A stretch of 64,000 nucleotides of DNA, from positions 3,039,501-3,103,500 of the forward strand of contig CP126168.1 in assembly GCA_032881465.1 (NCBI GenBank). The letters are read 5' to 3'. The position numbers and the translations under genes are program-made. The notes beneath the pieces are model-generated. The model made no database searches. It had not been told where the DNA came from and was given only the letters and a program-made list of their open reading frames with translations. Positions 19,187-53,164 of this stretch are shown here, piece after piece. The first letter of the stretch is position 1. Each line of letters begins with the position of its first letter. The DNA is from Parvibaculaceae bacterium PLY_AMNH_Bact1 (GTDB taxonomy: Bacteria; Pseudomonadota; Alphaproteobacteria; Parvibaculales; Parvibaculaceae).

Positions 19187-20089
19187 TTACCCAAACTCAT
19201 CCCTGAGAGTGCGGTACGCGAGCGCCGCAGCCAGTGGGCAAACCCCGTTACCGGCACCGCGCTGTCGGTCCACCCTATCGGCCATCCCATCAGCCAGTCC
19301 GAGAAAGCAGGGTTGAAGGTCAGGGGCGAAGCTGAGGGCCCGATGCCAGGCCGTAAGGTCACCAGGACCGGGTGCGAAGAGAGGCAATGGATCTGCGTCT
19401 GCCGCCTTGGTCGAAACCCCGCAGCTTGTAGCATCAGCCATTGCAGGGTCCACGCCTGAGCGCTCTCTTTTAGAGACGGCTGGCTGCCGCTCTGCCGACC
19501 GTCTGCCCGCAGCCGCAGCCCCTTTTTTGTGAACGCCAAATCGACCCGGTTTCCCGCCATCGAGGCGGTTGGCGTGTGCCAGTATGAAAAGACGTTCCCG
19601 ATAGTGGCTTGCGCCAACTTCAAACGCTGAGAAGAGGCCCGCTTTAACGCCATAGCCCATTCCCTGTAGCTCTCGGCCGACATCGGAAAATCCCAGATCG
19701 ATGTGGCCTTTGACATTCTCAAGGAAGACCCATTCGGGCTGTGCTTCCTTGATGATGCGTGCGACGTCTGGCCAGAGGTGGCGCGGGTCTGCCGCTCCTT
19801 TTTGTTTGCCGCCATAGGAGAACGGCTGACAGGGATAACCGGCAGAGAGGATCTGAATGCGGCCACGCCACGGGCGGCCTTTGAAGGACTTAACATCGTC
19901 CCAGACAGGCGCATGGTCCAGGGCCTGGTCTTCCATCCGCGCCACGAGGGTGGCTGCGGCATGGGCTTCCCGTTCGACGAAACAAACAGTTCGATAGTTG
20001 GGTTCTGCGATGTGCAGGCCAAGCTCCAATCCACCATATCCCGAACAGAGGGATATGCCGTTGAAGGAATGTTGGGAATGTAAAGCCAC
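19187..20089 (-). CDS. Phage DNA (cytosine-5-)methyltransferase
   Basis: A 300-aa C5-type methylase. Motif I is ISLCSGYGGLELGLH (AdoMet binding). Motif IV SAGYPCQPFSYGGKQKG carries the catalytic cysteine in PCQ. Motif VI is WVFLENVKGH and motif VIII REGRLF-like YRERLFILAH. The C-terminal GAGNGVCPLAAALA is motif X. The target-recognition region (about residues 170-240) is short. No restriction enzyme gene is nearby, so it is a solitary methylase that probably protects phage DNA from host restriction. It lies 13 bp downstream of com, the position held by mom in Mu, so its expression may be Com-controlled. Confidence 0.88.
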   Translation of the reverse strand: MALHSQHSFNGISLCSGYGGLELGLHIAEPNYRTVCFVEREAHAAATLVARMEDQALDHAPVWDDVKSFKGRPWRGRIQILSAGYPCQPFSYGGKQKGAADPRHLWPDVARIIKEAQPEWVFLENVKGHIDLGFSDVGRELQGMGYGVKAGLFSAFEVGASHYRERLFILAHANRLDGGKPGRFGVHKKGAAAAGRRSAERQPAVSKRERSGVDPAMADATSCGVSTKAADADPLPLFAPGPGDLTAWHRALSFAPDLQPCFLGLADGMADRVDRQRGAGNGVCPLAAALAYRTLRDEFG

Positions 20090-20102
20090 GACAAATGTCT
20101 TC

Positions 20103-20276
20103 TCACTTTTGAAGACGCTCGCGGCGTTCTGAGGTGGGGCTCTTGGTCACGGCCCTCAGCTGATTGATCGTGCCGCATCGGCGGCACTTGATCTCTATGG
20201 CTCCAGCTATAGCGGTCGCTTCTGCTTTAAACAAGAGTGCTCGGCATTTGTCATTGCCGCATCGTATGGACTCCAA
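20103..20276 (-). CDS. com: Com-like zinc-finger translational regulator
   Basis: About 57 aa from a TTG at 20276 with AGGGA upstream; a GTG at 20312 is an in-frame alternative. The sequence SIRCGNDKCRALLFKAE then EIKCRRCGTINQLRA has the four-cysteine finger of the Mu Com family. In Mu, Com binds the com-mom transcript and opens the mom ribosome-binding site. Here the gene just downstream is a cytosine methylase instead of mom. The 5' end of com lies within a ~160-bp leader that is duplicated at 20911-21071, where only the first ~14 com codons remain. Confidence 0.82.
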   Translation of the reverse strand: MESIRCGNDKCRALLFKAEATAIAGAIEIKCRRCGTINQLRAVTKSPTSERRERLQK

Positions 20277-20403
20277 TGAACGAATCCCTGCATGCTGAAC
20301 CCGCCGTGTCACACGGTGGCGGGATGGCTGTCTAGCCTAGGTTTTCAGTCATGCACATCGTTGGTGTGCGGTTCTGGGCGTTGGCGCGCCCATCCCCCGT
20401 CAA
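20242..20403 (+). repeat. Hairpin-rich leader repeat, copy A
   Basis: About 162 bp, nearly identical to 20911-21071. It spans the first com codons (minus strand) and the leader of the membrane gene at 20418 (plus strand). Stems on the plus strand: CCGTG/CACGG (20304-20316), GCACA/TGTGC (20353-20369), and long-range GGGATGG (20321-20327) with CCATCCC (20390-20396). Comparison with copy B shows stem-preserving changes. Confidence 0.85.
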
Positions 20404-20417
20404 TACATGGGAGGCAT

Positions 20418-20906
20418 ATGAAAAAGATGATCTCAAAACTGCGCCATCTATTTGCAAATATGGGCGAATACCTGGCGGATGTCGCTCTTGCTACTTTTGA
20501 AATGGCTGGAGAAATTCAGGGGACACTCGTTGTCGTCAATGCGGGGATAATATCGCTGTCTCTCTCAGCAACCATATCTGGGAACGTGGATGCAGAAATT
20601 ATCACCCACTTTGGCAGAGCCGCTGTCACATCCATTTTTGCATTCCTTTACACATTTTTTTTCACCTACTCCTACATCAACTTCATAAGAGTCAAACAGG
20701 AGCTTCCCGAAGTACCTCTTGAGCGGGGCAGCACAGGGGGTGGGTTGTTCGGTTTAACCAGTATTGCAATGACATTCGGCTCTGCAGTTTTTTTCCTCTA
20801 CGCAGTCATGACGCACGTCAAATCGCTCAACGCGCCAGGTCAAAATGTTAGTCCAGCTCAAGTCGAATTCTATTTCTCACCTCCAGAACCACCGCCACTG
20901 CCTTAG
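20418..20906 (+). CDS. Small multi-pass membrane protein, leader-associated cassette 1
   Basis: About 162 aa from the ATG at 20418, preceded by GGGAGG. Hydrophobic segments: TLVVVNAGIISLSLSATISG, AVTSIFAFLYTFFFTYSYIN and SIAMTFGSAVFFLYAVMTHV. The C terminus QVEFYFSPPEPPPLP is shared in form with the gene at 21108 (IEFYFSSAAPLP). Common points also include NAGII/SAAII, ITHFG/ITHSG and a following LY, so the two are diverged paralogues. The upstream leader repeat is also open in this frame, but an insertion/deletion difference between the copies argues that it is not coding. It is probably a lysogenic cargo gene of unknown function. Confidence 0.62.
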   Translation: MKKMISKLRHLFANMGEYLADVALATFEMAGEIQGTLVVVNAGIISLSLSATISGNVDAEIITHFGRAAVTSIFAFLYTFFFTYSYINFIRVKQELPEVPLERGSTGGGLFGLTSIAMTFGSAVFFLYAVMTHVKSLNAPGQNVSPAQVEFYFSPPEPPPLP

Positions 20907-20910
20907 AGCA

Positions 20911-21071
20911 CGGCATTTGTCATTGCCGCACCGTATGGACTCCAATGGGCGAATCCCTGCATGCTGAACCCGCCGTGTCACGCGGTGGCGGGATGGCTGT
21001 CTAGCCTGGGTTTTCAGTCATGCACCGGGCTTGGTGCGGCTCTGGGCGTTGGCGCGCCCATCCCCCGTCAA
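20911..21071 (+). repeat. Hairpin-rich leader repeat, copy B, with com remnant
   Basis: This second copy starts 5 bp after the stop of the gene at 20418 and precedes the paralogue at 21108. The stem at 21022-21037 is GCACC/GGTGC, where copy A has GCACA/TGTGC (a compensatory change). The stem at 20973-20985 has one U-G pair. On the minus strand it keeps about 14 com codons (LESIRCGNDKCRAL) and then loses com similarity. Confidence 0.85.
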
Positions 21072-21107
21072 GTAATGGTGGGAGATTTTCTCATAGGGGA
21101 CCGACAA

Positions 21108-21674
21108 ATGAATGCTGAGAACGAAACGCGGGCGGAGACGCTCAGGCATCGCCGAAACTTGGTCTCAGTTAGTGCGGCAATAATCTTCATTTCGACGTTC
21201 AGTCTTCAAGTTGGTTCGGTCGGTGGGTCCATTGTTGAACTAGATGGCATTACTCATTCCGGTGTTGTTTTAACGTTGTGGTTGGTGTTGCTTTATCAGA
21301 GCGCCTGCTATGGCGTCTCCTTACTGGTGACACGGCGCCTGGCAGGCTTGACGATGCTAATTGAGAACAAAGACGCAGCGCTAGCCGAACACGACGTGAC
21401 GCGTGCGAAAGACAAAGTTGCGCAGGAGGGTGGCCGTTCACCACCCCTTGACCATGGGACATTCATCGAAATCGACAGCGCGCGCCGTCGTTTGCATTTT
21501 GTTGAAAGAACAAGATTTATATTCATAGACATCGGCATCCCGGTGGTGATGGCAATTTATGGTACCCTTGCTGCCTTCACCTCTATCGACCCATCAGAGT
21601 TTTCAGGGGAGCAGTCGCACGATACTGCGCCAGCAATAGAATTCTATTTTTCATCAGCAGCACCACTGCCCTAA
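21108..21674 (+). CDS. Small multi-pass membrane protein, leader-associated cassette 2
   Basis: About 188 aa from the ATG at 21108, with AGGGG upstream. Hydrophobic segments: LVSVSAAIIFISTFSLQVGS, GVVLTLWLVLLYQSACYGVS and, after a charged central region, FIDIGIPVVMAIYGTLAAFT. It ends APAIEFYFSSAAPLP, like its paralogue at 20418. It converges on the tail-fibre gene (stop at 21721). No known family is recognised; position and orientation mark it as accessory rather than structural. Confidence 0.62.
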   Translation: MNAENETRAETLRHRRNLVSVSAAIIFISTFSLQVGSVGGSIVELDGITHSGVVLTLWLVLLYQSACYGVSLLVTRRLAGLTMLIENKDAALAEHDVTRAKDKVAQEGGRSPPLDHGTFIEIDSARRRLHFVERTRFIFIDIGIPVVMAIYGTLAAFTSIDPSEFSGEQSHDTAPAIEFYFSSAAPLP

Positions 21675-21720
21675 AGCCCGTCATAGACAATGCTGAAAGC
21701 ACCCACGATGCCCTCCATCG

Positions 21721-23166
21721 TCACAAACCAACAGTGAGGCTAAGGCCCGCCACATTGTCCAGGTGCCCGAATGTGCAGGTGAAACCGGGAGCAGTATAAG
21801 CAGACAGCGTGGCGTAGTGATATCCCTCCGACAGGCCGGACTTGGACACAGCCCCACCTATCGCACCGCCTGTACTACCAAACAGAGAAGCAGACGCACC
21901 CGTTTCAACATCACCGCCATCAAACGAGATGCCGTGATAGACCATATTGCTCCCGTTCACGAAGGCATAGCTGTTCAAGTTGCCTGCAACAACCTCATCT
22001 GACCAAGCCAAGAACTCACATCGGATTTCTGTATGAACCTCGCTCCAACTTGTGGCGGTTGTTGAGCGCGCCGTCGTGAACGCATTAAGACAATGCGATG
22101 CTTTTCGGTTAAACCAGGATCGCACAAACCGCTGTGTCTCGCTGTCCACCCACGCTGGACCAGCAATGGGCCTGGCTAGTCCAACGAGTGTGCGCGTGCT
22201 GTCGCCGGTCTTGATTTCAACGCCAGTGGTTGCGTCTGTGGCATGGGCGGTTGTCGATGCCTCAAGGGTCATCGTGCTTGAATTCATGTAGGCGTATATA
22301 TAGTGGTCTGTGTCGATGGTGAGGCCGGTTGCCGCAAGAGCCACCCCCGCAGCGGGGATCGTATACGCCGCACCATCAATGGTCAGTAGGTTGCCGTTGT
22401 AGGGATTGAGACGCAGGTTAGCCCCATCCTTCTCAAGCCGACACTCGCCGGCCGTTCCAGGCAACAGCAGCGCCTTTGCTTCTTCGAATGTCTTGAAGAC
22501 GTATGCCCCACCTTCCGTGACCAACACCCGGTCGTTCACGATTGGAGCGGGCAGGTTCGCAGCGGCGAGTGCTGCTACAGCTGCTGCCGCCGCGTCATCG
22601 GCGTCAGACGCAGACCCAGCGGCGGCGAGCGCCGAGTTACCGGCATTCGTTTCACTGGTGGCAGCTTCACCGGCCTTCGTCGTGGCATTGGTCTCGCTGG
22701 TTGCAGCTTCACCGGCCTTCGTGGTGGCGATGCCAGCCTGCGTTGTGGCTGTCGCTTCACTGGCGGCTGCTTCACCCGCTTTCGTGGTCGCGATGCCAGC
22801 CTGCGCGATGGCGGCAGCCCTTTGGCCGGTTGTGGCAGTCGCTTCACTGGCGGCTGCTTCACCCGCTTTCGTGGTCGCGATGCCAGCCTGCGTTGTAGCG
22901 GTTGCTTCACTGGCGGTTGCTTCACCGGCCTTCGTCGTGGCGATACCGGCCTGCGTTGTGGCAGTCGCTTCACTAGCTGCGGCCTCATCAGCTTTGTCAC
23001 CCACCGCCTGGCCAACTGTGCCCGTGTCTTCCAGCGCGGCCGGAAAATTCTCCTGGTGCCCATCATTGGCGAAGCCACCTGGATTGGTGGCCGGGTCATA
23101 GGCATTGGAATTATATTTGGTTTTAAGGCGGTCAATGGCCGCTTGCTCGGTGGCGTTATAGCTCAT
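21721..23166 (-). CDS. Tail fibre/receptor-binding protein with Ala/Thr/Glu repeats
   Basis: A 481-aa protein. Residues about 60-190 repeat a unit like ATTQAGIATTKAGEAAASEA five to six times. Such Ala-rich repeats in phage fibres usually form a trimeric coiled shaft. The C-terminal ~280 residues are Gly/Thr-rich beta structure, fit for a receptor-binding tip. It is the last gene of the late operon, overlaps the upstream tail gene by 4 bp, and sits where host-range fibres usually lie. The repeat array (22600-22990) could change length by slippage. No fibre-assembly gene was recognised nearby. Confidence 0.75.
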   Translation of the reverse strand: MSYNATEQAAIDRLKTKYNSNAYDPATNPGGFANDGHQENFPAALEDTGTVGQAVGDKADEAAASEATATTQAGIATTKAGEATASEATATTQAGIATTKAGEAAASEATATTGQRAAAIAQAGIATTKAGEAAASEATATTQAGIATTKAGEAATSETNATTKAGEAATSETNAGNSALAAAGSASDADDAAAAAVAALAAANLPAPIVNDRVLVTEGGAYVFKTFEEAKALLLPGTAGECRLEKDGANLRLNPYNGNLLTIDGAAYTIPAAGVALAATGLTIDTDHYIYAYMNSSTMTLEASTTAHATDATTGVEIKTGDSTRTLVGLARPIAGPAWVDSETQRFVRSWFNRKASHCLNAFTTARSTTATSWSEVHTEIRCEFLAWSDEVVAGNLNSYAFVNGSNMVYHGISFDGGDVETGASASLFGSTGGAIGGAVSKSGLSEGYHYATLSAYTAPGFTCTFGHLDNVAGLSLTVGL

Positions 23167-49351: not shown

Positions 49352-49983
49352 GCGGCACCGCCCCTCGCAAGAGGTGCATCGTCAACTTCGATTTCTTCAC
49401 CCGTGTTGGGGTTGCAGAGCGTGGTACCGTTGCGCCTGAGATAAGGTGCTTCTGGTCCTAGATCATCGACGAGCAAATAGACATGGTGCCCGTTGCTGGT
49501 TGGGGCCGTGCCCGGCTCACGCCGAGCGAGCTTCTTGACCACACCCGCCGCCCGCAGACCTCGAATGTATCGCGAAGCATTTCTAAGAGCGTTCTGATCG
49601 TCGGTGTCTTCAAGGGCCGCATAGGCTATCAACTCACCAAGCGTTGCCCGCTTCTTCAGGCGAAGAGCTTTCCAGACACGCGAGCGCAGCGTAGTCCGTT
49701 GCGGTTTGCGTTCACCCGTCAGTGGCCCTTGCGGGCCAGATGTATAGCCGCGTTTATAGGCCTTTTTGCCTTTAGCTGTGACCTGATAGCACCCAGATTT
49801 CTTGCGAACGACGTAGCCATTCGTGACATGGCGGCAAATGCTGGATGTAATCTTCTTTCGCTTGAGATTTGGCAGCTGCGCGTCCAACTCATCGAGCGTC
49901 GTCGCCACATCCGTTTCCACGAGCAAAGCGAGGATCTGAGCCTGTGCACCACCGGTCTCGTTTTTAGGGGTGGCGTTTTTCAT
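49348..49983 (-). CDS. Two-winged-helix phage early protein
   Basis: A 211-aa protein with two winged-helix-like parts: QAQILALLVETDVATTLDEL to KITSSICRHVTNGYVVRKKS, and TLRSRVWKALRLKKRATLGE to ASRYIRGLRAAGVVKKLARR. Directly downstream of MuB and coupled by ATGA. No family is recognised; DNA binding is inferred from fold pattern. Confidence 0.6.
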   Translation of the reverse strand: MKNATPKNETGGAQAQILALLVETDVATTLDELDAQLPNLKRKKITSSICRHVTNGYVVRKKSGCYQVTAKGKKAYKRGYTSGPQGPLTGERKPQRTTLRSRVWKALRLKKRATLGELIAYAALEDTDDQNALRNASRYIRGLRAAGVVKKLARREPGTAPTSNGHHVYLLVDDLGPEAPYLRRNGTTLCNPNTGEEIEVDDAPLARGGAA

Positions 49984-50732
49984 GCCACCCTCTTTGCGGT
50001 CGTTCTCGCTTTGCCATCATTGGTGAGAAGTGAGAGCTGCATGTCCGTTGCCGCTATCGACTTCAGACCCCCTTTGCGGGCGTGTCTCTCAACCTCTTTG
50101 ACGGCATTGAGGACAGAACGCAGACGGCCTTCCGTGCGCGCGTGAATAGCGTTTACAAGATCGTCTTCGATTTTGAGGGGCACACCGCTGGAAGCTTCAG
50201 CAAGGCTCTCACAAACCCTGTGGACATCTTTAACCGTGCACATTTCAAAGCGCATCACATCGGTTATTCGTGAGTAGATCTGCTGATATCGCTTCAGCTT
50301 TTTGTCTACGCCTGTCATGCCGCCAATGATGATGTGGGTTTCGGTGAGATCCGAAATGTCCCGCAACATCTCAATCACTTTTGTGTCGTGCATTGCGTGT
50401 TCGATTTCATCGACCACGACATTGCGCCCACTTCCAGCAAGCCCTCTCAGAGCTTGCTCAAAGAGCTTTTCTGATCGGTTGGCTGGCATCTCGCCTAGCT
50501 CGGTTACAAGATCGCGAAGCGCCCAATTGAGACGCCATCCGCTCTTGGCCCGTAGATAGACATGATCGTCATTCTGCGTTGCCCACCATTCGAGCGTTTT
50601 CGTTTTGCCGAGACCCGGCGAACCCATAACCAGTTGCCAGCATGCTTCCGGTGCGCCGCGCTGAGCGACACGCTGAATACCCGCAAGGAACCTTTCAACG
50701 TTGGTGAGGTTTTTCACAAAAATTGGCCGCAT
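49980..50732 (-). CDS. MuB-like AAA+ transposition target ATPase
   Basis: A 250-aa ATPase. Walker A QLVMGSPGLGKTKTLEWWAT, Walker B GRNVVVDEIEHAMHDTKVIE, sensor-like IIIGGMTGVDKKLKRYQQIY. Like MuB and TniB it should bind target DNA, activate the transposase and impose target immunity near phage ends. It lies 24 bp after the MuA stop. Its N-terminal DNA-binding part is shorter than in Mu, as in B3-type phages. Confidence 0.88.
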   Translation of the reverse strand: MRPIFVKNLTNVERFLAGIQRVAQRGAPEACWQLVMGSPGLGKTKTLEWWATQNDDHVYLRAKSGWRLNWALRDLVTELGEMPANRSEKLFEQALRGLAGSGRNVVVDEIEHAMHDTKVIEMLRDISDLTETHIIIGGMTGVDKKLKRYQQIYSRITDVMRFEMCTVKDVHRVCESLAEASSGVPLKIEDDLVNAIHARTEGRLRSVLNAVKEVERHARKGGLKSIAATDMQLSLLTNDGKARTTAKRVA

Positions 50733-50756: not shown

Positions 50757-52889
50757 TCATGAAGCGTTCGGTTCGCTGGCCTCAGCGTCCCGCACACGAA
50801 TGGCCGGGTCGTTTTCCAACTCGGCCAGATATTCCTGTTGTCCTTGTGTAAGTTTGTCGTGGTGCGCCCTCGCCCACTGCACCCACGTCCAATCGTCCGT
50901 CACATCCGCTTTTGGTTCGGGGGATGAGTGCAATGGGATCACCAGAGCTTGCTTAGCCTCTTCCGCAAGGGCTCGGTCTTCAGGGCTCAAACTGTTCGGT
51001 GGTTCCGGCTCTCGGTCCAAGTGCGCAGCCGCCTCGCCAGCTGCCCCCAGGGCAGCGGTGGTGTGCTCGTCGGTTGGGAGCGGAAATGGCAGGACATCAT
51101 CTGCGGCAATCGCCGCGAGAATTTCATCAGCGACATTGTGAACTTTATGATCCCGAGAGAGACTTCTGAGGTGCGCCTTAGCCTCTTTTACGGCCTCGCG
51201 CTGTCTCGCCTTCGCTTTCGTCGCGACTTCCTCACGACTTATGCCCGTCCGCTCCGGCGCTTCAGCTATACAGATAAACTGATGGTCGCCCCCATAGACC
51301 ATGATGCGACCCATATCAGCCGGGTCCAGGCGGACATGAACACGCTCACCAACGTGCGCGCCCAATTCCGGCGCGATAAAGAGAGCGTTTTCAACCCGAA
51401 TGCCCTTCTTGCCAACGACCCTGAGACCCTCGGTGTCGGGCGCTTCCGCCAGGAACACATCAAGCGCGCGTTCATTGGAAATCGTGGAGAGAGTTCCCGC
51501 CCAGGAAAGAGCCTGCAGTTTTGGTGACTGACCCAACGCACTGTGCGTGCGTCGGTGATAGACCTTCTCGATCCAGTCAGAGATTTTTGACTGCAGCTCT
51601 TCACCGTTCAATTCAACAGCGATGGCCCCTTGGGGATCGCCGAAGCGTTGTGCAAAGCTGCGGCGCGCTTCAATCGCCTGGCGGTCAGTTACATTGTGCC
51701 CAATGAAGCCCGGTAACAGCGAGACAAAATCCCGTTGGAGCGTGCCAAAGAAGCGCTCAACATGTGGCTTGCCCTCAGGTGTAAACGGCAGACAGAATTC
51801 CTGTTGAATGCCTAGCCCGCCAAGGGCACGCGCGACGTGAGCCGACGCAAAGTCCTTCCCATTGTCCATCTTGATGGTATCGGGCACGCCCCAATCCATG
51901 ATGCACTGACGCATGAGGAGTGTTGCAGCTGTGGCCTTCGGTGTTGGCGTCACCAACACCTTTGCCCGCCGCGTCCACACGTCCACCATAGCGACAAGAT
52001 TGAGCCGCCGCCCTTCGGTCGTCATGATGTCAGCAGGGGAAGCGTCGATCTCCCACACAGCATTTGGCGCAGATGCCTTTTCAGACTGTGATCCAAAGGC
52101 TACCAGGCGAAGGTTCTTGTGAGCGTCTGGATTGGCGGCAGCGAGGAAAGCGTCTGCATACCGCTCTCGCGCGATATTCATAAACCGCTGAACCGTTCGC
52201 TTCGCCAACCGCTTGTCGAACCTAGCCGCAACGATTTCGATCATCTGGTTCGCGGTCAGGTGGGGACGCTCTGCCATATTGGCGATACAGAAATCACGCA
52301 GCTGCGGATCACCTTCAATCTGGCCCTTGCCTTTGCGCGTTCCATACTTACCGCCGAGACGCTGAGCACCTTCTCGGGCAGCTTGAGACTGCCAGCGACC
52401 GAGAGACGAAACAGACAGGGTGCCAATCTCATCTTGCACCCACTCTTCAACGGGTATTTCACCGGCGTTGAAGAGGGTTGAAAAAGCACTTCGAGCAGCA
52501 ATCATCGACAGCCCACCTTCATCTTTGAAGGTGCGAACGAGGTTGATGATGACCGTTCTCGCTGCCTGGCGTTTTTGAGCCTTTGATCCTCTAACGGAAA
52601 TAGTGTTCCCCGCGCCGTTCGGGGGGACGACATGGCGCGGGGAACGTCCGTCCTGCTGACGGGATGTGGCGTTCAGCAGGACTGGATTATCAAGAAGAGA
52701 GCGACGGGCTAGTTCAATCCGGGCAGCTTCAGGCAAACTGGAAAGGTGATATTCACGACCGCCACCGCGCCCTTCACGTGGACGCCATTGCCACCCCTCA
52801 CGCTCTGCTTGACGATCTACGTTTGAACGGTGGTGCGGAATGGCAGACAGCTTGAGCGCCGCAAGATCTTTTGATGAAAACCAATCCAT
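50757..52889 (-). CDS. MuA-like DDE transposase
   Basis: About 710 aa from the ATG at 52889. The N-terminal winged helix (SSKDLAALKLSAIPHHRSNV) is followed by Arg-rich site-binding regions. The DDE core has VWEIDASPADIMTTEGRRLN (first D near residue 280), PDTIKMDNGKDFASAHVARA (second D near 343) and GKPHVERFFGTLQRDFVSLL (E near 378). The C-terminal beta-barrel and tail follow (LDPADMGRIMVYGGDHQFIC). It should bind the GCGCCACATGG sites at both ends and cut next to CA. It is co-translated with ner (TGATG). Confidence 0.93.
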   Translation of the reverse strand: MDWFSSKDLAALKLSAIPHHRSNVDRQAEREGWQWRPREGRGGGREYHLSSLPEAARIELARRSLLDNPVLLNATSRQQDGRSPRHVVPPNGAGNTISVRGSKAQKRQAARTVIINLVRTFKDEGGLSMIAARSAFSTLFNAGEIPVEEWVQDEIGTLSVSSLGRWQSQAAREGAQRLGGKYGTRKGKGQIEGDPQLRDFCIANMAERPHLTANQMIEIVAARFDKRLAKRTVQRFMNIARERYADAFLAAANPDAHKNLRLVAFGSQSEKASAPNAVWEIDASPADIMTTEGRRLNLVAMVDVWTRRAKVLVTPTPKATAATLLMRQCIMDWGVPDTIKMDNGKDFASAHVARALGGLGIQQEFCLPFTPEGKPHVERFFGTLQRDFVSLLPGFIGHNVTDRQAIEARRSFAQRFGDPQGAIAVELNGEELQSKISDWIEKVYHRRTHSALGQSPKLQALSWAGTLSTISNERALDVFLAEAPDTEGLRVVGKKGIRVENALFIAPELGAHVGERVHVRLDPADMGRIMVYGGDHQFICIAEAPERTGISREEVATKAKARQREAVKEAKAHLRSLSRDHKVHNVADEILAAIAADDVLPFPLPTDEHTTAALGAAGEAAAHLDREPEPPNSLSPEDRALAEEAKQALVIPLHSSPEPKADVTDDWTWVQWARAHHDKLTQGQQEYLAELENDPAIRVRDAEASEPNAS

Positions 52890-53164
52890 CAAGAGTCACC
52901 CCGAACGGCATACAGACGCCTGCCTGACTCGTCATATCTCTCTGGAAACAGTTGCTGAGGTGTGACACCGAGAACGTCTGCCAATTCCTTCTCAACAACG
53001 AAAGACGGCTGAAACAAAGCTTGCCTGACTGACGCAGCGGTTCGACCGATCCTCTCTCCTACGCTCTGATATGTGAGACCTTTCCGCTTCAGCTGGTAGA
53101 GCACCCAATAACCTCGGTCGCGCGGCTCTTTGGGAATGTCTATATTTATAGGCGATATGCTCAT
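52889..53164 (-). CDS. ner: Ner-like DNA-binding regulator
   Basis: A 91-aa protein (EPRDRGYWVLYQLKRKGLTY, QSVGERIGRTAASVRQALFQ, VVEKELADVLGVTPQQLFPE) of the Ner/Nlp family, with a central helix-turn-helix. In Mu, Ner down-regulates the early and repressor promoters. The first codons lie inside a large inverted repeat (53141-53191), and the early promoter -10 is only ~8 bp upstream of the ATG. No ribosome-binding site is visible, so the transcript may be leaderless. Confidence 0.87.
   Translation of the reverse strand: MSISPINIDIPKEPRDRGYWVLYQLKRKGLTYQSVGERIGRTAASVRQALFQPSFVVEKELADVLGVTPQQLFPERYDESGRRLYAVRGDS

What the first reader, a model, noticed from the sequence alone, without database searches (positions are those of the whole stretch)
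20242..21071. Duplicated structured leader with compensatory stem changes
Two ~160-bp leaders are nearly identical (about five substitutions outside one variable hairpin), while the membrane proteins behind them are strongly diverged. In the variable hairpin GCACA/TGTGC in one copy becomes GCACC/GGTGC in the other, keeping all pairs. In another stem a change gives a U-G pair on the plus strand, and the long-range GGGATGG/CCATCCC pairing is kept. This points to a conserved RNA element, or a recombination site, controlling exchangeable cassettes.
Basis: partly seen in the sequence, partly recalled or inferred. Interest (0 to 1): 0.83.

Follow-up and report, generated by a model that had tools for sequence, protein, structure and literature searches.

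The report
RNA leader of phage DNA-modification genes
The two near-identical stretches are copies of a folded RNA leader, here recognised as a recurring and apparently undescribed family, that sits in front of the genes with which many proteobacterial phages chemically mark their own DNA, and it probably helps decide when those genes are switched on.

Summary
In detail: 20236-20410 and 20905-21078 are about 92% identical, the variable hairpin changed by compensation, and the membrane proteins behind them share little beyond a C-terminal tail. The strand reading is wrong. By position the element belongs to the minus strand, directly 5' of com (Mu-type zinc ribbon) and a C5 DNA methyltransferase, in a Mu-like transposable prophage. 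Copy 2 is the same leader plus about 14 codons of a truncated com. Covariance-model searches found relatives across Pseudomonadota; 49 of 59 elements are directly followed by a modification gene (25 D12 adenine methylases, 23 com, 1 ParB-type). P1 and P2 show changes on both sides at 11 of 11 pairs in 29 elements aligned by sequence; in the 18 not found by a structure model, P2 still does at 4 of 5. Further helices, one reaching the start codon, pass permutation tests. In 16 D12 records searched, com was not detected. No Rfam family matches. Best reading: an undescribed cis-acting leader RNA that gates expression, probably translation, of phage DNA-modification genes, and a joint at which opposite-strand membrane cassettes entered. 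Trigger and mechanism are unproven, and pairing chemistry does not settle the strand.

The parts
20300..20402 (-). Leader RNA copy 1, core P1-P4 (the upstream arm of P0 lies beyond 20402 and is marginal here)
   Evidence: R2 match, 89.6 bits (by construction, since R2 was built with it); found only twice in the genome
20375..20392 (-). P1 hairpin, loop CGCCAA on the minus strand
   Evidence: 6 of 6 pairs with changes on both sides in 29 sequences, 97.1% of cells paired
20353..20369 (-). P2, the variable hairpin of the finding
   Evidence: 5 of 5 pairs with changes on both sides, 95.1% paired; 4 of 5 in the 18 rows found by pattern
20300..20323 (-). P4 hairpin with CCA bulge
   Evidence: permutation of arms 39/5000 on the com strand, 671/5000 antisense (arms placed by a model that contains P4)
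20290..20354 (-). P5: GCATGACTGAA pairs with TTCAGCATGC, enclosing P3 and P4
   Evidence: 17/5000 on the com strand, 102/5000 antisense, 45 loci; 7 and 3 of 5000 in an earlier set of 23
20103..20276 (-). com gene (57 aa from the proposed TTG start; the mechanical ORF begins at 20312)
   Evidence: PF10122 Zn_ribbon_Com 6.4e-13 on ORF 20103-20312; start assignment
19187..20089 (-). C5 cytosine DNA methyltransferase behind com
   Evidence: PF00145 2.2e-34
20969..21070 (-). Leader RNA copy 2, core P1-P4
   Evidence: R2 match, 83.8 bits (by construction)
20906..20945 (-). com remnant behind copy 2: about 14 codons, then the reading continues into antisense of the membrane gene
   Evidence: sequence; no com recognised downstream of copy 2
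20418..20906 (+). membrane protein 1 (162 aa), opposite strand, with its own ribosome-binding site
   Evidence: 2 hydrophobic segments, 47% GC; no Pfam family, PHROG matches only at E 0.18 or worse
21108..21674 (+). membrane protein 2 (188 aa), opposite strand
   Evidence: 3 hydrophobic segments, 51% GC; no Pfam or PHROG family up to E 1

Best explanation
The element is the structured 5' leader (about 130-170 nt) of a phage DNA-modification operon, read on the minus strand: hairpins P0, P1, P2, then a helix P5 that encloses P3 and P4 and whose 3' strand lies at or just before the start codon of com or of the methyltransferase. I propose that it gates expression of the modification genes, most likely by hiding the initiation region through P5 until something (a phage or host factor, a ligand, or transcription and folding kinetics) opens it, so that phage DNA is modified at the right time. 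Shown here: the structure family, its position, its conservation in front of different downstream genes, and that it occurs in genomes where no com is detected. Inferred: that it is transcribed, that it acts on translation, that P5 is the off state, and that a trigger exists. In this window the leader was duplicated together with the first codons of com when opposite-strand membrane-protein cassettes entered between the tail genes and com, probably by homologous recombination in the leader.
For: On a MAFFT-only alignment of 29, P1 and P2 have changes on both sides at 11 of 11 pairs; the structure is 93.7% paired against 78.3% in shuffles and 36.9-49.4% when slid, 0/500 shuffles as high on percentage paired and covariation score. 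In the 18 rows found by DNA pattern, whose patterns do not touch P2, P2 has such changes at 4 of 5 pairs and 83 of 89 cells paired. Of 59 elements, 49 are directly followed by D12 (25), com (23) or a ParB-type methylase (1); L013, missed by the script, is com as well. The start codon lies 18-26 nt after P4 in 43 of 49 if the in-frame start nearest to 21 nt is taken, and in 27 of 44 if the first in-frame ATG after the preceding stop is taken. Com is found in 8 of 26 records and in none of the 16 of these where the element precedes D12, eight of them whole genomes or assemblies. P0, P4 and P5 pass permutation tests more strongly on the com strand (P0 38 vs 620, P4 39 vs 671, P5 17 vs 102 of 5000). 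In L169, L179, L199, L191 and L193 the P5 strand contains the assigned start codon. Related leaders precede the modification gene in isolated phages (B3, TJ1; StopSmel, Aussie, phiKM1, RR1-B).
Against: No transcript, probing or reporter data. G-U against A-C counts do not favour the com strand (P1+P2: 2 GU, 5 AC; 1 GU, 8 AC), and the antisense strand has the lower folding energy in 34 of 49 (p 0.0001), though z-scores do not differ (p 0.41). In the earlier set of 23 loci P5 was slightly better antisense (3 against 7 of 5000). 11 of the 29 aligned rows were found by a model that contains P1 and P2, and P1 is part of the patterns that found the rest, so covariation in P1 is partly selected for. 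P5 is weak or absent in several loci (L162, L164, L201). 18 of 31 com genes in 398 genomes had no R2 match in front at E 0.01. G743 has an element before D12 and, on another contig, a com gene. No ligand or binding protein is known.
Confidence: 0.6

Rival explanations
1. The leader acts at the level of transcription or mRNA stability (attenuation, antitermination, processing of a tail-to-com read-through mRNA) rather than on translation.
For: Arms 1:2 (P0), 3:4 (P4) and a possible 2:3 pairing have the layout of an attenuator; many elements follow an open frame read in the same direction (mechanical frames).
Against: Arm 2:3 pairing does not exceed permutation (930/5000); no conserved U-run follows P4 (L152 has TTTTCTCTCT); in 20000-21800 three terminator-like sites were found against 2.1 expected, none in a leader on the minus strand, one at the plus-strand edge of copy 2 (21064-21082).
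Confidence: 0.2
2. It is a DNA-level element: operator and promoter of the late modification genes, or a site for recombination or packaging.
For: An A-T-rich stretch about 5-12 nt after P4 could be a -10 box; Mu com has its annotated late promoter at this place; the duplication shows recombination here; pairing chemistry does not prefer the com strand.
Against: A variable-sequence stem with compensatory change (P2) is not expected of an operator; position is tied to the start of the gene; no sigma-70-like promoter found at 20000-21800 (0 against 1.5 in shuffles), though other promoter types are not covered.
Confidence: 0.12
3. One reading: a plus-strand leader that controls the membrane-protein cassettes.
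For: Three such cassettes start 14-38 nt from the element with ribosome-binding sites (window twice, L017), and L017 keeps the element and its cassette although com is gone.
Against: 5 of 59 elements (6 with L016) have such a gene, while 49 of 59 have a modification gene on the other strand; P4 looks decayed in L017, where com is gone.
Confidence: 0.06
4. The leader is a binding site for Com (autoregulation), as Com binds mom mRNA in Mu.
For: 23 of 59 elements precede com (24 with L013); Com is an RNA-binding protein (PMC6483171, sections read).
Against: Element kept in front of D12 in 16 of 16 such records where no com was detected; no match of R2 at Mu com up to E 10.
Confidence: 0.04

Closest known systems
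Mu com/mom translational control (Com and the translation inhibition structure of mom mRNA)
   Same: Phage DNA-modification operon, RNA structure near a start codon, small zinc-ribbon Com protein.
   Different: There the structure is in front of mom and is opened by Com (PMC6483171); here the structured leader is in front of com itself, or of a methylase in genomes where no com was detected.
Cis-regulatory leader RNAs and riboswitches in Rfam 15
   Same: Compact covarying 5' leader with a helix at the initiation region.
   Different: No Rfam family reached its cut-off in the leaders scanned; ligand unknown.
D12-methyl RNA motif (name recalled; no paper with this term is in the library)
   Same: By recollection, a candidate RNA upstream of D12 adenine methylases.
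   Different: No Rfam model matched the leaders scanned; that such a model is among the 4227 is recalled, not checked, so membership is not supported rather than excluded.

Membership tests
Any Rfam 15 family | Covariance-model match at or above the gathering score | tested here: not met
   Window 64 kb at gathering: only tRNA; 20100-21150 up to E 5: SNORD94, E 1.1, outside the leader; 9 related loci up to E 1: only tRNA; 12 more loci up to E 1: four sub-threshold matches, three far from the elements and NiCo (29.3 bits, cut-off 37) on the other strand over the start of com in L205. Other element loci were not scanned
Mu com/mom translational control | Dependence on Com | tested here: not met
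   Element before D12 and com not detected in 16 of 16 such records; virus records may be fragments; G743 has both on separate contigs
Mu com/mom translational control | Com-binding motif CC(N)2-3GAG in a hairpin loop next to the inhibited start | not tested
   Motif taken from PMC6483171; no systematic search was made
Structured RNA (general) | Covarying base pairs beyond chance | tested here: met
   P1 and P2: 11 of 11 pairs with changes on both sides, covariation score reached by 0/500 shuffles; P2 4 of 5 in the 18 pattern-found rows. Shuffles do not keep relatedness
Intrinsic terminator or attenuator | G+C-rich hairpin followed by a T-run, with an alternative pairing | tested here: not met
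   No conserved T-run after P4; alternative arm 2:3 pairing 930/5000; scan of the window
Metabolite riboswitch (for example for SAM or SAH) | Ligand binding | not testable with these tools
   Only the absence of a match to known riboswitch models could be shown
Com translational regulator (window gene) | PF10122 match above cut-off | tested here: met
   48.4 bits against cut-off 22.9

The most novel reading that the evidence does not exclude
A phage-borne RNA switch, widespread in temperate phages of Pseudomonadota and independent of Com, that senses a signal (a methyl-donor metabolite, a late phage product or the folding state of a read-through mRNA) and thereby times the self-modification of phage DNA, whatever modification enzyme is plugged in behind it.
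Probability: 0.2. Interest if true: 0.85.

Novelty: new variant of a known kind. Interest (0 to 1): 0.62.

Why it matters
Phages must modify their DNA late enough not to harm the host and early enough to escape restriction. Mu does this with several layers around mom (recalled, and PMC6483171 for Com). A conserved RNA that stands in front of unrelated modification genes in many phages would be a shared, exchangeable control module for anti-restriction, and would make the timing question testable in tractable phages such as Sinorhizobium phages StopSmel and Aussie.

Tried and rejected
Plus-strand leader for the membrane genes: rejected as the main role, because relatives follow the other strand's gene. 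Pseudoknot or switch between the 5' GGCGGG and CCCGCC of P4: conserved complementarity, but no pair with changes on both sides and permutation 930/5000; kept only as a possibility. Deciding the strand by G-U pairs and by folding energy: inconclusive or against; told in the report. Nucleotide search of phage and plasmid records with the window leader: no match. tblastn with window Com against phage records: no match. Pattern matches L018, L024 and L144 were dropped as chance (L144: R1 E 0.5; the other two by eye). Family scans of both membrane proteins gave nothing useful. Nine literature searches found no paper on such a leader among the titles and abstracts listed; several lists were cut (for example 10 of 3,303, 10 of 81), and the library lacks most subscription papers.

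Choices and dropped rows: one search was given 60 sources; L203 and L204 gave no match there; L189 (a truncated element) was left out by oversight, L160 (second, partial copy in G066) was not included, and loci that repeat a place already given (L004-L008, L021, L023, L149-L151, L158, L165, L168, L185, L192, L196, L200) were not given. 29 of the 59 are the sequences R2 was built from. Searches used 49 of 59 (nine near relatives and one with too little upstream sequence dropped); one search used the 45 of the non-redundant set that have a recognised gene. The script took the in-frame start nearest to 21 nt (ATG preferred), which favours clustering; one search repeats the count without that choice. 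In some searches the ends of P2 and P4 were placed by a model that contains P2 and P4, so the P4 test is partly circular; P0 and P5 are not in the model. The two mismatched-arm controls gave 2245 and 939 (com strand), 2580 and 346 (antisense) of 5000. In one search the printed stretches of loci clipped at contig ends are not the matches; those loci were read again.

Full report
What is there. The window holds a tandem duplication: 20236-20410 and 20905-21078 are about 92% identical and are the only copies found in the genome, by blastn and by covariance model. On the plus strand each copy is followed by a small gene for a membrane protein (20418-20906 and 21108-21674; 2 and 3 hydrophobic segments) without a convincing family match. 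The two proteins share a C-terminal tail, (I/V)EFYFS..PLP, and little else. On the minus strand the first copy runs straight into com, a Mu-type zinc-ribbon regulator (PF10122, 48.4 bits), and then a C5 DNA methyltransferase (PF00145). The second copy carries the same leader and about 14 codons of com and then breaks off. The surroundings are a Mu-like transposable prophage: transposase, DNA transposition protein, portal, terminase, protease, head and tape-measure genes lie on the minus strand, with com and the methylase beyond the tail genes.

Relatives. A DNA search in 98 related genomes, the window's own included, gave four with matches, two of them sharing only a short core. Pattern scans gave more. 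Reading these loci, chance pattern matches apart, showed varied genes on one side of the element and on the other the start of com or of a methylase, or a remnant of one, except in L017 where com is gone. A covariance model (R1, from the 14 sequences of A2) found the element in 9 of 385 genomes of the class and 5 of 82 of another order; an improved model (R2, from 29 sequences) found it in 21 of 398 genomes drawn from the phylum, 14 of them outside the class, 3 of 18 and 8 of 40 of the window's own order, each at E 0.01 per genome. These sets overlap, and model E-values are rough.

Structure. On a sequence-only alignment of 29 elements (A4; near-duplicate pairs included) P1 has changes on both sides at 6 of 6 pairs and 97.1% of cells paired, P2 at 5 of 5 and 95.1%; with the possible long-range pairing included the set is 93.7% paired against 78.3% in shuffles and 36.9-49.4% when slid. 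A caution: 11 of the 29 rows were found with R1, which contains P1 and P2, and the patterns that found the others include P1. In the 18 pattern-found rows P2, which no pattern touches, has changes on both sides at 4 of 5 pairs and 83 of 89 cells paired; P1 there has 2 of 6. The P1 loop is CGNCAA in 22 of 29. In the larger set (59 elements; 49 after dropping near relatives) three further helices were tested by exchanging arms between loci: P0 in front of P1 (38 of 5000 permutations as good on the com strand, 620 antisense), P4 (39 and 671; arms placed by a model that contains P4), and P5, which joins the stretch after P2 to the region before or at the start codon (17 and 102; 45 loci; 7 and 3 in an earlier set of 23). 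With a shorter arm P0 gave 1 and 102 of 5000, and was better than all four of its own shifted controls in 25 of 47 loci.

Which strand. Position decides for the com strand. In 49 of 59 elements a DNA-modification gene follows directly: 25 D12 adenine methylases, 23 com, 1 ParB-type methylase. The other ten are L013 (com by eye, and by PF10122 in its record), the truncated copies (window copy 2, L166, L016), one that lost com (L017), four without a recognisable gene (L172, L174, L183, L184) and one at a contig end (L180). The models reach at most the first bases of the gene (R1) or end before it (R2), so the association is hardly built in. Taking the in-frame start nearest to 21 nt, 43 of 49 starts lie 18-26 nt after P4, median 22; without that choice, the first in-frame ATG after the preceding stop lies there in 27 of 44, and upstream of the end of P4 in 14, where the frame stays open. 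Pairing chemistry does not settle the strand: in P1 and P2 A-C cells outnumber G-U cells (5 to 2; 8 to 1), and the antisense strand folds with lower energy in 34 of 49 loci (z-scores equal, p 0.41). The arm-exchange tests of P0, P4 and P5 in the larger set are stronger on the com strand.

Com is not needed. A search with PF10122 in 26 records that hold elements found com in 8; in the 16 where the element precedes a D12 methylase no com was detected, eight of these being whole genomes or assemblies and eight virus records that may be fragments. One genome outside that set, G743, has an element before D12 on one contig and a com gene with its own leader on another. So the leader is probably not merely a Com target.

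Reach of the family. In 398 genomes PF10122 found 31 com genes in 26 genomes (two of them below the family's cut-off); comparing coordinates, 13 of 31 have an R2 match directly in front. With filters off, 17 of the other 18 loci gave two more matches exactly in front of com (L238 E 0.00075, L242 E 0.0021) and four weak ones at the same place (L222, L224, L225, L235; E 0.8-2.4); the remaining listed matches are all weak and mostly elsewhere. Of 35 phage records that matched a Com query ten were fetched: R2 found the leader of Curvibacter phage TJ1 (E 0.007) and Pseudomonas phage B3 (E 0.01), a weak one in JD024 (E 0.8), and nothing at Mu com. Of 172 records that matched a D12 query eight were fetched: R2 found Aussie (2.5e-5), StopSmel (6e-5), phiKM1 (0.006) and RR1-B (0.05), not the other four. 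A hairpin with a P1-like loop occurs 40-180 nt before the start in 14 of these 35 loci, against 34 of 576 control windows; in L215 and L238 it is probably not P1. By eye the leaders of B3, PAN70, AP3, Mana, MuM16-1 and others have the same order of hairpins; that they are homologous is inference.

How it probably works. P5 covers the assigned start codon in L169, L179, L199, L191 and L193 and the stretch before it in others, and is weak in several; the region between P4 and the start has only weak ribosome-binding features by eye. The simplest reading is a leader that limits initiation until it is opened. The trigger is unknown; the case for a switch is open. In Mu, Com is proposed to open an inhibitory structure in front of mom (PMC6483171: abstract, Introduction and the sections on binding and overview read); here a different structure stands one step earlier, in front of com or of the methylase.

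The duplication. The unit [first com codons + leader + membrane gene] is repeated with period 668-669. The likely history is insertion of a second cassette by recombination in the leader. Opposite-strand membrane genes stand at the same place in L017, L159 and L198 as well as twice here (5 of 59); L016 has a long opposite frame with four hydrophobic segments that may be a sixth. So the spot between tail genes and leader receives such cassettes repeatedly. Whether they use the leader is not shown.

Comparison with the known. No Rfam family reached its cut-off in the leaders scanned. Nine literature searches listed nothing on such a leader; PMC4378225 was only searched for terms and other papers were seen only in listings. 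I therefore call it an undescribed family of cis-acting leader RNA, with the limit that several listings were cut and most subscription papers are not in the library.

Noticed in passing
window 25573-52892: Minus-strand Mu-like transposable prophage with MuA-type transposase (50757-52892), transposition protein B (49980-50732), terminase, portal, protease, major head and a tape-measure gene of 1745 codons.
   Followed up: partly
window 22616-23025: Direct repeats spaced mostly 63 bases inside a minus-strand frame next to the tail genes (21721-23166), coding for Ala/Thr-rich repeats.
   Followed up: no
window 20418-21674, L017: Membrane proteins that are hardly alignable share the C-terminal tail (I/V)EFYFS..PLP or a close variant; the tail may be a sorting or interaction signal.
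   Followed up: partly
L173 com-strand ORF: A com zinc ribbon appears fused to a C5 DNA methyltransferase in one reading frame of 323 codons.
   Followed up: no
start of D12 genes in L009, L010, L014, L153, L156, L198 and others: D12 methylases begin with ATGGAGTC (MES), the same first codons as several com genes, as if genes had been exchanged behind a fixed leader and start.
   Followed up: partly
L179, upstream of the element: A second P1-like hairpin with loop CGTCAA lies just in front of the modelled element.
   Followed up: no
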